Shown here: positions 20,167-52,537 of the stretch, piece by piece
Numbering within the stretch: the first letter of the stretch is position 1
Layout: each line of letters starts with the position of its first letter
From: Oscillospiraceae bacterium
GTDB taxonomy: Bacteria; Bacillota; Clostridia; Oscillospirales; UBA929
DNA length: 59,056 nt
Direction: 5' to 3'
NCBI GenBank assembly: GCA_009782385.1
Contig: WRJE01000007.1
Span: forward strand, 1-59,056
The notes under the pieces: generated by a model
Database searches by the model: none
What the model was told of the DNA's origin: nothing
What the model saw: the letters and a program-made list of their open reading frames with translations, nothing else
Program-made: the position numbers and the translations under genes

Positions 20167-22851
20167 CTAATTTATAACAAATGCAAATGCGGGATCATTA
20201 AGGGTTATCGCTCGACCACTTCCAAGGGCGGTGCTAGGTATGTTCATTTGCATAACAGTAGTTCCTGTCGAGGTTGGTGTACCGCTGATTTCAAAGACAA
20301 TAAGGGTAGAAGTCATAACCGTGGCAGTTATGGATATACCCGGCGGAACAGTTATCCAACTGTTGATTCCGGTATATGACCTAAAACTGTCTCCGCTTAA
20401 TTGAAGAGTTATCGTCAACGCCGTTCCAGTGCCGCTAGGCATCGGCGTACCCGCGATTCCTCCAATCGTTTTTCCTATGGGCAAACTAATTTCCCAAATT
20501 TGCCATATGACACCAGTCCGTGTAGGAACCACTAAATCACCGCCCTGAAGGGCACTTGCCGGGATTCTAGCTGTTATATATGAAGATGAGGCAATAGTCG
20601 GAGTACCGTGGAATTCAACAGTAACTGATGTCGCGCCTGCAGTCACGGCGGTTGCCACCCGCGCTTGCAGTCCCTTTGGCATAATTCCCCTTGGAGAGGT
20701 AAACCATGCGGTAACAATGGCTCCTCCGGACATTGCGGTAAATGTATCCCCTGTTAAGTTAATTGTCACTTTTTCGGCGGAAGAAGGAAGGCTTTCGTTT
20801 ATTCTGCCGCTTACTACTGTATTGGTCGCAAATGTTACCGAACGGTTTGTTATGTAATACCTTGCGTTCGCGTTCGGTGTAGTCATCGGGGAGGCTTCGC
20901 TTTGAACAGCGATTCCGGGGACGTGCAAAGCCATTGGTAAATAATAACTGTATGTAAGGCTGTCGTAAGTGATTGAGGTCGGAGTTCCGTGCATCTCAAC
21001 TGTCACGGTAGTGTCTCCCGCATCAACATTAGCAACCACTCGCGCACTTAATCCTGCAGGTCTATTGGTAAACCATCCACTGATGTCATCGCCTACTGAC
21101 ATAGCCGCAAATCCGCCATTTGTTATGGTAACTGTAAATTGTTGGAACGGCGATGTAAACGGAACAGTCGCATAACCTGTTATAGTCACCGCACCATCTA
21201 TTTCAACGGTAGTCAAGCCGACCGGAATATCATCCGGCGGAGTGCCGGGTGGCGTGGTTATTAATTGCTTCGCGCTTGCGGGTTTACTGAAAGTCGCCCT
21301 CTGCCAAGCCGTCAACCCTCCTATGAACTCTGATGTCGAGGCGTTCACGCGGGTGTCGGTATACCATGATTCAAATAAAGGTAAATCTGCAAGATTAGTT
21401 GACGGGAACGGGCTTTCGGGTATCGGCGGCAATGGATTTTCATTCAGATGTCTTTCTGAGCCACGATAAAGGGTATCGTTCCCTCTAAGGGGTAGAATTT
21501 GCTTTTTAGTGTTGATTTTATAGTTCGGCGGCTTCAACTCGCTCGACACTTTAATTTGTTTTGGTCTGCTTGCCGGAGTATATGTAAAGCCCGGAGTTCC
21601 GGCTTGCACCGCTGTTTGCGGCGGGATTCTGATTAAGTAAGGCGTGCGGACAATACGATACCCAAACTCTCTATAGGTTAATACAGGTATGCCCCCATAC
21701 GGCATTAACCCAAAACCTTTTCTGTCGGCAACCTTTGACCCCATAGAAAGCCCTATTTCTATGTTGCCGATATATTCGGTTTCGTTTGCGCGGCTTCGAG
21801 ACGGTTCTGATAATACCCATCTTCCGGAAGTCGCTCCGGTTATATCCGCTCTAATCGCGTAGTTAATATTATAACGTGTAATCTGCGGGCGGCTCTTAAT
21901 TAACGGAAATGTTATAACATTCAAATTGTCATAGGGCTGCCGTGTAATTGGATTTATCGCTGAATCGGACAGCGATAACGTCATGCCTTTTTCCAAAAGT
22001 TTTGGGAAATTCGCGTGGTTAAGAAGTTCCGGTCTCATTGGCTTCCATTTTTGACCGCCATCTAAACTATACGACAATATTGTATAGTACGTTGGAACAG
22101 TTAGTATTTCGCTTGATAGGTTAATGCTGAATCCCGGTCTTGTATTACCGTCCGGACCGTTTGCCGGAGCTATAACCTCATACGCGCTGTAATTAATGCC
22201 GAATTGCTCTTCGGTATAGACAATCAAATTATTCCATTTGCCTGTTTCGCCGTTAATTGTATAATTCATACTGAGATTTGTGCTGTTTGGAACTACTGCC
22301 CTAGCTCCTGCGGGCATTCCCCAAAAAGCATTCCCCTGCATTGGCATATTCAGCGGTTCAGTAGGCGACATGAAGTAGACGGTCATCAAACTAGACGTTC
22401 CGCCAAACGCTTCAAACCCTATTTCATCGACATTCTTCGGAATAAATATATGCGTTAATTTTTTGCAGTTATAAAACGCGCTGTATTCAATAGTTGTGAG
22501 ACTTTCCGGCAGAATAACCCAAGACACCGAACTGTTAAAAAATGCGTTATTGCCGATTATCTCTACACCATCAGAAATATATATGCTTTTCAAGCTGCGA
22601 TTGCCGGAAAAAGCATTGCTGCCGATTGAAGTGACGGTTCTTCCGTCAATAACTCCGGGAACAGTCAAGTCCTTTTGTTTGCCGGAATAATTCTTTATTT
22701 CGACCGTGCCGTCAGCTTTTATCTCGTAAGCCCAGTCGCTGCTTGTTAGAGCATAGGCGGTAAAAATGCTTGATTCTGTCATCATGAACACGAACACACA
22801 GAAAACCATCATAATCAATATGCGGAATTTCTTTTTTGTCATAGCTTTCAT
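20167..22851 (-). CDS. BspA-like leucine-rich-repeat surface protein
   Basis: 894 residues. Signal peptide (KKKFRILIMMVFCVFVFMM...). LRR_5 / BspA-type repeats follow at about 45-165, with typical units such as VTSIGSNAFSGNRSLKSIYI and IGNNAFFNSSVSWVILPES. From about 200 onward is a long low-homology region containing three or four related beta-rich modules with the phrase TVEMHGTPTSITYDS or TVEFHGTPT and F/VTFATNT. LRR_5 proteins are surface adhesins or host-binding proteins in gut and oral bacteria. There is no sortase motif. The gene is preceded by the inverted-repeat switch (22900-23064), and its expression is probably set by it. ATG at 22851 has a ggagg site. Confidence 0.85.
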   Translation of the reverse strand: MKAMTKKKFRILIMMVFCVFVFMMTESSIFTAYALTSSDWAYEIKADGTVEIKNYSGKQKDLTVPGVIDGRTVTSIGSNAFSGNRSLKSIYISDGVEIIGNNAFFNSSVSWVILPESLTTIEYSAFYNCKKLTHIFIPKNVDEIGFEAFGGTSSLMTVYFMSPTEPLNMPMQGNAFWGMPAGARAVVPNSTNLSMNYTINGETGKWNNLIVYTEEQFGINYSAYEVIAPANGPDGNTRPGFSINLSSEILTVPTYYTILSYSLDGGQKWKPMRPELLNHANFPKLLEKGMTLSLSDSAINPITRQPYDNLNVITFPLIKSRPQITRYNINYAIRADITGATSGRWVLSEPSRSRANETEYIGNIEIGLSMGSKVADRKGFGLMPYGGIPVLTYREFGYRIVRTPYLIRIPPQTAVQAGTPGFTYTPASRPKQIKVSSELKPPNYKINTKKQILPLRGNDTLYRGSERHLNENPLPPIPESPFPSTNLADLPLFESWYTDTRVNASTSEFIGGLTAWQRATFSKPASAKQLITTPPGTPPDDIPVGLTTVEIDGAVTITGYATVPFTSPFQQFTVTITNGGFAAMSVGDDISGWFTNRPAGLSARVVANVDAGDTTVTVEMHGTPTSITYDSLTYSYYLPMALHVPGIAVQSEASPMTTPNANARYYITNRSVTFATNTVVSGRINESLPSSAEKVTINLTGDTFTAMSGGAIVTAWFTSPRGIMPKGLQARVATAVTAGATSVTVEFHGTPTIASSSYITARIPASALQGGDLVVPTRTGVIWQIWEISLPIGKTIGGIAGTPMPSGTGTALTITLQLSGDSFRSYTGINSWITVPPGISITATVMTSTLIVFEISGTPTSTGTTVMQMNIPSTALGSGRAITLNDPAFAFVIN

Positions 22852-22899: not shown

Positions 22900-22925
22900 G
22901 CTTTCAAAAGGTGTACCATTTGACA
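22900..22925 (+). repeat. 26-bp inverted repeat, left arm (serine-recombinase crossover site)
   Basis: Starts gctttcaaaaggtgtacc and ends atttgaca. Its reverse complement is exactly 23039-23064, 26 of 26 bases. It is itself an imperfect dyad, tcaaaaggtg/taccatttga, centred on the dinucleotide GT at 22913-22914 with 9 of 11 arm positions pairing. A dyad with an asymmetric 2-bp centre is the shape of invertase sites of the Hin family, which are also 26 bp long. Confidence 0.88.
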
Positions 22926-23038
22926 TTAGTCCTTATATATTGTAAAATCTAAAAAGCAGATATTGTGCATACAATATTTGGTGGAAATTTCTAAAGATAT
23001 ATACGTTGTAGTACGATATATATTTCGATGCGGTGGGC
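22926..23038. other. Predicted invertible segment (113 bp, A+T-rich)
   Basis: Bracketed by the perfect 26-bp inverted repeats and next to a serine recombinase. It contains promoter-like hexamers pointing to the LRR gene in the orientation shown and a dyad tattgt-gcat-acaata at 22961-22976. In the flipped orientation the hexamers would point at the 3' end of the recombinase gene. Confidence 0.7.
22946..22974 (-). promoter_or_regulatory. Candidate switchable promoter of the LRR gene
   Basis: On the minus strand TTGTAT (22974-22969), 17 bases, TAGATT (22951-22946), about 95 bases before the LRR start. A second candidate lies partly in the repeat: TTTACA (22946-22941), 17 bases, TCAAAT (22923-22918). 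Both are weak matches in A+T-rich DNA; either would be lost from the LRR gene on inversion. Confidence 0.4.
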
Positions 23039-23064
23039 TGTCAAATGGTACACCTTTTGAAAGC
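23039..23064 (-). repeat. 26-bp inverted repeat, right arm
   Basis: Exact reverse complement of 22900-22925. It touches the TGA stop codon (23065-23067) of the recombinase gene, so inversion would exchange the sequence just after the recombinase. Confidence 0.88.
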
Positions 23065-23721
<657 letters not shown>

Positions 23722-51676: not shown

Positions 51677-52267
51677 ATGGCAAATACATACGGTTATGTT
51701 CGCGTAAGTACACGTGAACAGAACGCAGACCGGCAGCTCGTCGCTATGAGGGACTTCGGGGTAACGGATAACAACATTCTGGTGGAGAAAATATCAGGCG
51801 CGAGTTTTGAACGTCCGATTTATCGGCGGCTGCTGAGAAAACTAAAACCCGGCGACACCCTTGTCATCAAGAGCATCGACAGGTTGGGCAGAGACTATGG
51901 CGAGATACTGGAACAGTGGAGGGTCATCACGAAAGAGAAACAGGTTTCCATTGTTGTTCTTGACATTCCCCTGTTGGATACACGGCAGAAAGAACGTGAC
52001 TTGACCGGGACATTCATAGCTGACCTAGTGTTACAGATACTCAGTTATGTCGCGCAGCAGGAGCGGGAGTTCATCAAGCAGCGTCAAGCGGAGGGTATAG
52101 CGGCGGCACAGGCGAGAGGTGTCAAGTTCGGCAGACCGCCGATGGAACGTCCAACGTCTTTCAGTGAAGTGTTAGGTGCGTGGGAGAGGCGAGAAATCTC
52201 AGCAAGAGAAGCCGGTCGGAGGTTGGGAATCAGCTACAAAACATTTCAAGTATGGGTCGGACAGTAA
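51677..52267 (+). CDS. Second serine recombinase of the invertase/resolvase family
   Basis: 196 residues, [20 protein letters not shown] (active serine in RVST), [53 protein letters not shown], and a C-terminal HTH (REAGRRLGISYKTFQVW). It resembles the enzyme at 23065-23673 over most of its length. aagggag ribosome site. A zinc-ribbon repeat protein and a BspA-like lipoprotein follow. No long inverted repeat was found near it. Confidence 0.92.
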   Translation: MANTYGYVRVSTREQNADRQLVAMRDFGVTDNNILVEKISGASFERPIYRRLLRKLKPGDTLVIKSIDRLGRDYGEILEQWRVITKEKQVSIVVLDIPLLDTRQKERDLTGTFIADLVLQILSYVAQQEREFIKQRQAEGIAAAQARGVKFGRPPMERPTSFSEVLGAWERREISAREAGRRLGISYKTFQVWVGQ

Positions 52268-52537
52268 CTTTTTGAGAGAATAATTAGACTTAAACTCTCA
52301 TGAGTATTCCGGCTTTATCAAAACAAATTTGCAACAGCGGTTATAGTATCGAACGCCTACTTCACAGAAACAAGATTCACTTACAGCGCAAAGTTTTGGA
52401 CATAACAATCAAACCTTCCGAAAACCCTCTGTGTCGATTATAGACGAGTAAAGGGTTGCGGTCAAGGCTTATGAGAAAAAATGTCTACTTTAATTCTCAA
52501 TTTCTATTCTGATTCAAAGTCAATAGGAGGAACGAAA

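What the first reader, a model, noticed from the sequence alone, without database searches (positions are those of the whole stretch)
22918..22976. Invertible-segment promoters point to the LRR gene in the present orientation
TTGTAT-17-TAGATT (22974-22946, minus) lies wholly inside the segment. TTTACA-17-TCAAAT (22946-22918, minus) would have its -10 inside the repeat, which would be shared by both orientations. The flipped end offers ATATAT at the matching -35 place. That predicts the window shows the ON state. The hexamers are weak, so this is a hypothesis. A 6-bp dyad at 22961-22976 sits on the -35 of the first candidate.
Basis: inference. Interest (0 to 1): 0.55.

Follow-up and report, generated by a model that had tools for sequence, protein, structure and literature searches.

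The report
Flip-flop promoter switch beside surface-protein gene
A small stretch of DNA that a neighbouring enzyme probably flips back and forth appears to switch a bacterial surface-protein gene on or off; dozens of relatives share the design, with the two flip sites almost always a whole number of DNA turns apart, but which state this genome shows cannot be told.

Summary
The hexamers are present at the stated coordinates but are weak (7/12 and 9/12) and no more than chance. The setting is real: a perfect 26-bp inverted repeat (22900-22925 / 23039-23064) lies directly behind a serine recombinase gene (23065-23697, minus) and ahead of the BspA/LRR gene (20167-22851, minus). These are the only two such sites in the 2.17-Mb assembly.

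In relatives the layout recurs: recombinase, site, about 115-220 bp, site, target gene. Of 71 site pairs, 42 carry a sigma-A-like promoter (TTGNNN-17-TATAAT) whose -10 ends 27-33 bp before the site it points at: 35 towards the recombinase (OFF), 7 towards the target (ON). Site spacing follows whole helical turns (86 of 89 within 2.6 bp). One pair of loci with the same recombinase and target has the interior flipped and the inner half-sites exchanged exactly at the centre.

A stronger plus-strand match (11/12), pointing away from the LRR gene, uses the recombination half-site as its -35, and that design is not enriched in relatives. ON versus OFF stays undecided (my estimate about 0.55 ON). New variant of a known kind, the invertible promoter.

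The parts
23065..23697 (-). serine recombinase gene (210 aa, TTG start), proposed dedicated invertase
   Evidence: Pfam Resolvase E 1e-25; nearest solved structures Sin 92 bits and gamma-delta resolvase 76 bits; homologues next to paired sites in relatives
23039..23064 (.). recombination site, recombinase side; central dinucleotide 23050-23051; begins right after the recombinase stop codon
   Evidence: perfect inverted repeat; family site-matrix score 30.0, best in the window
22900..22925 (.). recombination site, target side; central dinucleotide 22913-22914
   Evidence: site-matrix score 26.4, second best in the window; no other match of the core pattern in the own genome
22926..23038 (.). 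113-bp interior of the invertible segment; site centres 137 bp apart, i.e. 13 helical turns + 0.5 bp
   Evidence: weak by consensus (7/12) but in the family's promoter position
   Evidence: -10 end 4 bp from the site centre; called relatives are at 27-32
22920..22948 (+). TTGACA-17-TAAAAT, 11/12, pointing away from the LRR gene; -35 coincides with the recombinase half-site, probably fortuitous
   Evidence: inward promoters of this design not enriched, 2 of 142 ends above the 99% null against 1.4 expected
22960..22977 (.). 7-bp dyad ATATTGT-GCAT-ACAATAT inside the segment, role unknown
   Evidence: sequence; 13 of 58 relatives' interiors have a dyad of at least 7 bp, shuffles average 4.7, maximum 10
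20167..22851 (-). target gene: 894-aa secreted protein with BspA-type leucine-rich repeats
   Evidence: Pfam LRR_5 E 3e-23; ATG 48 nt beyond the left site; hydrophobic N-terminus

Best explanation
A self-contained phase-variation cassette. The serine recombinase encoded at 23065-23697 binds the two 26-bp sites and inverts the short segment between their central dinucleotides (22913-22914 and 23050-23051). In relatives the segment carries one outward promoter whose -10 ends about 30 bp before the site it points at; in one orientation it reads through the left site into the LRR gene (ON), in the other through the right site, antisense to the 3' end of the recombinase gene (OFF). Shown: anatomy, recurrence, conserved promoter position, helical register of the sites, and in relatives both orientations with exchange at the site centre. 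Inferred: that this copy inverts, that its promoter is TTGTAT-17-TAGATT, that LRR expression follows orientation. The state in the window is not determined; I lean slightly to ON (about 0.55).
For: Perfect 26-bp repeat abutting the recombinase stop codon; only these two sites in the own genome. Of 69 genome-contig relatives with at least 250 bp downstream, 54 are in the repeat set, L163 is an identical-interior duplicate, and 5 more have two sites by matrix: 60 of 69. Spacings peak at 10.4-10.5 bp: R 0.68, n 71; recombinases under 80% identical R 0.72, n 65, best period 10.4, 0 of 2000 jittered sets as good; 18 pairs not used to find the period R 0.70, p about 1.5e-4; 86 of 89 within 2.6 bp of a whole turn. 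Promoter at one position in 42 of 71 against 0.7 expected per end. L153 v L159: downstream 388/401 nt and recombinase 188/202 aa identical, interior alignable only flipped (local score 41 v 10.5), same TTGCAA-17-TATAAT ON in one and OFF in the other; inner half-sites swapped between arms, outer ones fixed; a third relative, L221, agrees with the OFF copy. In 11 of 80 loci the contig ends within 250 bp downstream of the recombinase, against 1 of 80 upstream, as mixed orientations would cause.
Against: No reads or second genome show this locus in the other orientation. The window's own promoter is weak and the family profile cannot place it. 29 of 71 relatives have no promoter at the family position above threshold, nor have 7 of 10 held-out loci. 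Four downstream-complete relatives (L112, L115, L156, L170) show no site and several only one. Phased length could in part be inherited, although it holds among recombinases under 65% identical (R 0.85, n 12). Contig ends could also come from duplicated cassettes.
Confidence: 0.82

Rival explanations
1. Same switch, but the window shows OFF: the working promoter is the plus-strand TTGACA-17-TAAAAT (or another promoter pointing at the recombinase), and inversion would aim it at the LRR gene.
For: Best consensus match in the region, 11/12, above the 99% null for its end; 35 of 42 callable relatives are assembled in the OFF orientation.
Against: Its -35 is the inner recombination half-site, and the outer half-sites carry TTGACA about as often (21 outer v 30 inner); promoters of this design are not enriched in the family (2 of 142 ends, 1.4 expected). 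The family promoter is outward, and the window's better outward score points to the LRR gene (6.0 v 4.5).
Confidence: 0.4
2. A relic: sites and recombinase persist but the segment no longer inverts or carries no working promoter, and the LRR gene is driven from elsewhere.
For: Weak promoter; no observed flip at this locus; profile indeterminate.
Against: Arms are still 100% identical over 26 bp, the recombinase frame is intact over 210 aa, and the spacing is in register (137 bp = 13.05 turns).
Confidence: 0.12
3. The recombinase is a resolvase or transposon remnant and the repeat is an unrelated hairpin or terminator.
For: Nearest solved relatives are Sin and gamma-delta resolvases; each arm is nearly palindromic.
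Against: Paired inverted sites behind most homologues, helical register, and the flipped L153/L159 pair; the terminator scan found none at this place.
Confidence: 0.03

Closest known systems
Hin/Gin-type serine DNA invertases (flagellar phase switch)
   Same: Small serine recombinase; 26-bp sites (size of hix recalled) in inverted orientation; segment with a promoter (recalled for Hin).
   Different: Recombinase outside the segment; segment of about 0.11-0.2 kb with sites in helical register instead of about 1 kb with a Fis-bound enhancer (enhancer passages read in PMC3798978; 1 kb recalled); sequence nearer Sin/gamma-delta than Gin (92/76 v 58 bits).
Mpi master invertase of Bacteroides fragilis
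   Same: Serine recombinase inverting short promoter segments (passage in PMC5903667).
   Different: Mpi acts on at least 13 scattered segments; here one dedicated pair of sites per genome was found; NCBIfam Mpi model scores 31 bits against a cut-off of 272.
Tyrosine-recombinase invertons (fimS; C. difficile cwpV and flagellar switch; Bacteroidota invertons)
   Same: Inverted repeats around a switchable promoter near surface-protein genes.
   Different: Unrelated recombinase class (class named in listings and passages).
hCom2 inverton groups (PMC11892184; sections 6 and 7 and passages read)
   Same: Catalogue of invertons grouped by repeat motif, incl. Firmicutes_A groups 139 and 125; invertases near them usually not drivable by the embedded promoter.
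   Different: The paper has no occurrence of 'serine' or 'helical' in its main text; its invertases named in section 7 are tyrosine-type or site-specific integrases; supplement motifs were not available, so overlap with groups 139/125 is not excluded.

Membership tests
Invertible promoter (inverton) | inverted repeats around a short intergenic segment | tested here: met
   26 bp, 100%, 113 bp apart
Invertible promoter (inverton) | recombinase able to act on the repeats close by | tested here: met
   serine recombinase abuts the repeat; linkage recurs in relatives. Activity itself not tested
Invertible promoter (inverton) | promoter inside the segment, towards the target in one orientation | tested here: inconclusive
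   window 6.0 against a 95% null of 5.6 and 99% of 7.6; met in 42 of 71 pairs, the window counted among the misses
Invertible promoter (inverton) | both orientations exist | tested here: inconclusive
   not seen at this locus; seen in relatives L153 v L159 and L221
Hin/Gin DNA invertases | N-terminal serine recombinase catalytic domain | tested here: met
   Pfam Resolvase, residues 12-155
Hin/Gin DNA invertases | sequence closer to Hin/Gin than to resolvases | tested here: not met
   Sin 92.2, gamma-delta 76.2, DNA-invertase 4m6f 58.1 and 3uj3 56.0 bits
Hin/Gin DNA invertases | Fis-bound enhancer required | not testable with these tools
   needs biochemistry
Mpi family (NCBIfam PRK13413.1) | score above the curated cut-off | tested here: not met
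   31.1 bits against 272
Sin-type resolvases | directly repeated res sites with accessory sites, resolving co-integrates | tested here: not met
   the two sites are inverted; accessory sites were not sought

The most novel reading that the evidence does not exclude
A horizontally spread, self-contained switch module (recombinase, two sites, outward promoter) that settles in front of unrelated genes, and whose enzyme works without a remote enhancer because the two sites must lie on the same face of an 11-21-turn DNA microloop: helical register is itself the topological filter. In the OFF orientation the promoter reads antisense into its own recombinase, so that the switch damps its own flipping and dwells OFF (35 OFF to 7 ON among callable relatives).
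Probability: 0.3. Interest if true: 0.75.

Novelty: new variant of a known kind. Interest (0 to 1): 0.56.

Why it matters
If right, one recognisable layout lets anyone find phase-variable genes, and guess their state, in thousands of unculturable gut genomes without reads. The helical register makes an old question, how a serine recombinase confines itself to inversion at very short range, directly testable by inserting half turns. The targets in relatives are varied (S-layer, repeat-rich surface proteins, zinc-ribbon proteins, a chemotaxis receptor), so the module looks like a general on/off device.

Tried and rejected
1) My own first reading, that the plus-strand 11/12 match makes the window OFF: set back because its -35 is a recombination half-site and the design is not enriched; kept as a rival.

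3) Calling the window's state by sequence profile: the centre-aligned profile is right in 41 of 42 leave-one-out tests but gives the window -2.7 with a shuffle sd of 7.4; mean local-alignment score is right in 39 of 42 but gives 11.19 v 10.73. Both indecisive. The 42 were chosen by promoter score, so these validations are not independent of it.

4) Looking for the same locus in both orientations: of four same-orientation near-identical pairs, L135/L186, L141/L187 and L147/L175 are identical (probably the same assemblies) and L162/L189 is nearly so.

5) Rows dropped: five loci without a clear site centre (G007a, G002, G011, G138, G062); loci with identical interiors (L163, and the G copies of L130, L136, L147); L193 (runs of N), L175, L186, L187 (duplicates) from the held-out set. 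The R of 0.837 printed still contains these four; the clean value is 0.842, n 10.

6) Promoter replication in the held-out 10 loci: 3 called, all OFF, 7 not. The family promoter is common, not universal.

7) Literature: nine searches found no description of this recombinase/site family or of helical register in natural invertons. Jiang et al. 2019 (Science) is not held, so absence from print is not claimed beyond these searches.

Full report
What was checked. Both promoter candidates are in the sequence as described, with 7/12 and 9/12 matches. In shuffles of the same 165-bp segment such matches are as frequent as observed (P 0.34 and 0.18), so on their own they carry no weight. The finding omits the strongest match, plus strand 22920-22948, TTGACA-17-TAAAAT, 11/12, which points away from the LRR gene.

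Anatomy. On the minus strand the order is serine recombinase (23697-23065), site (23064-23039), 113 bp, site (22925-22900), 48 nt, ATG of an 894-aa secreted protein with BspA-type leucine-rich repeats. The arms are identical over 26 bp. The core TCAAAAGGT-GT-ACCATTTGA is nearly palindromic around an asymmetric central dinucleotide, the usual layout of a serine-recombinase site (layout recalled). A core pattern finds only these two sites in the 2,165,048-bp assembly. The recombinase is nearest Sin and gamma-delta resolvases among solved structures. The assembly is unnamed (104 contigs, 88% complete); its genus-mate G001 has a contig of the same length, with the match at the same place, as a record titled Oscillospiraceae bacterium Th196P3bin47. 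That this is a termite-gut bacterium is inference.

Relatives. 80 genome-contig loci (300 stretches encode a relative, best 80 kept) and 58 recombinase places from the window and its relatives (chosen's list) were examined. 71 distinct site pairs resulted (55 + 16), with the first site's centre mostly 11-25 nt behind the recombinase stop codon. Of the 69 genome-contig loci with at least 250 bp downstream, 54 are among the 71, one (L163) is an identical-interior duplicate, and five more show two sites by matrix (L102, L104, L121, L146, L160): 60 of 69. L112, L115, L156 and L170 show none; L094, L128, L131, L143 and L155 show one. Record titles span Oscillospiraceae, Lachnospiraceae, Synergistaceae, Desulfovibrio, Spirochaetaceae, Bacteroidales and others; several are metagenome bins, so a misbinned contig is possible in any one case.

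Helical register. Distances between site centres fall at about 115, 126, 136, 146, 157, 168 and 178 bp, with gaps between. Period 10.5: R 0.68, n 71. With recombinases thinned to under 80% identity: R 0.72, n 65, best period 10.4, none of 2000 jittered sets as good, none of 65 spacings 4-7 bp out of phase. Under 65% identity: R 0.85, n 12. The control distance, second site to reading-frame start, gives R 0.19, n 55. Pairs not used to find the period: n 18, R 0.70, p about 1.5e-4; in all, 86 of 89 lie within 2.6 bp of a whole number of turns, where half would be expected. The window's 137 bp is 13 turns + 0.5 bp. Rayleigh p values treat loci as independent, which they are not fully; the thinned sets are the fairer figures.

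Where the promoter sits. A generic sigma-70 matrix shows one favoured geometry: spacer 17 and -10 ending 27-33 bp before the centre of the site it points at. Under it, 42 of 71 segments pass a 99% shuffle threshold at one end (one of them, L145, at both), against 0.7 expected per end: 35 point to the recombinase, 7 to the target; in the 58 thinned loci 29 and 6. Spacer-17 hits of at least 9 bits without a position limit fall at 27-31 bp in 26 of 33 cases. The range was chosen; in the 10 held-out loci 3 pass, all OFF.

Both orientations. L153 and L159 (two rabbit-gut Lachnospiraceae bins; rabbit inferred from the sample name Lapin) have recombinases 188/202 aa identical and 388/401 nt identical just downstream, yet the interiors align only when one is flipped (local score 41 v 10.5), with a 51-bp length difference. 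The same TTGCAA-17-TATAAT points to the target in L153 and to the recombinase in L159. The outer half-sites stay with the flanks and the inner ones have changed places, as expected from exchange at the central dinucleotide (L211 is L159, L212 is L153). L221, 73% in recombinase, aligns unflipped with L159 (36 v 11) and flipped with L153 (23.5 v 9). L159's genome holds a further close copy, L163, so the compared loci may be paralogues; the flip relative to recombinase and target stands either way. In 11 of 80 loci the contig ends within 250 bp downstream of the recombinase against 1 of 80 upstream, as expected if mixed orientations break assembly.

The window's own state. Candidate 1 lies at 32 bp with spacer 17, score 6.0 (null 95% 5.6, 99% 7.6); the opposite end gives 4.5. 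A likelihood with family geometry gives 7.2:1 for ON, 0.59 after the 7:35 base rate. Mean local alignment leans ON by little (11.19 v 10.73), the profile OFF by little. The plus-strand 11/12 match is OFF evidence if taken at face value, but its -35 is a half-site (outer half-sites read TTGACA 21 times, inner 30) and such inward promoters are not enriched (2 of 142 ends above 99%, 1.4 expected; the window's is the strongest). Candidate 2 is rejected: -10 end 4 bp from the centre. I put ON at about 0.55.

Targets. The first long frame behind the second site was scanned in 68 loci: 98 Pfam families, most in one member each; the most frequent are SLH (4 of 68), Flg_new repeats, Cas12f1-like TNB and zinc ribbon (3 each), LRR_5, VWA and PP2C (2 each). 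Frames were picked by length, so some are not the true target. L111 and L125, two loci of one bin, share recombinase (550/631 nt) and segment (119/139) but not what follows (210/463): the cassette has been reused before different genes.

Novelty. Invertible promoters are well known; the closest catalogue read (PMC11892184, sections 6 and 7 and passages) names tyrosine-type or site-specific integrases. Nine full-text searches found neither this family nor helical register in natural invertons; supplements and Jiang et al. 2019 could not be read. I call it a new variant of a known kind.

Noticed in passing
window 51677-52267 (+) and 52287-52486: A second serine recombinase (53% identical) lies in the same window, ahead of a zinc-ribbon protein gene (about 52539). 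By eye two degenerate, inverted 26-bp sites about 198 bp apart (19 turns less 1.5 bp) may flank a second switch; the family site matrix does not score them.
   Followed up: partly
L048 1-1025 and L037 3087-4069: Variant layout: the recombinase gene itself lies between two sites 777 and 805 bp apart, and the repeats extend over the start and signal peptide of the outside genes (107-147 bp arms), as if it chose between two surface proteins.
   Followed up: partly
own genome C37:23246-23824, C55:3596-4177, C36:24166-24342: Further recombinase paralogues (44%, 41% and a 57-aa piece at 68%); C55 has an imperfect inverted repeat upstream instead of downstream.
   Followed up: partly
L189, second site: Two tandem sites 21 bp (two turns) apart at the target side, where its close relative L162 has one.
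   Followed up: no
G047a, G023a, L148 segments: Central dinucleotide AT is its own complement, so site orientation would not be fixed by it; deletion as well as inversion should be possible.
   Followed up: no
L153, L159, L163, L166 genomes (handles G519, G520): Five and three homologous recombinases per genome at E 1e-60 or better, several with their own site pair.
   Followed up: partly
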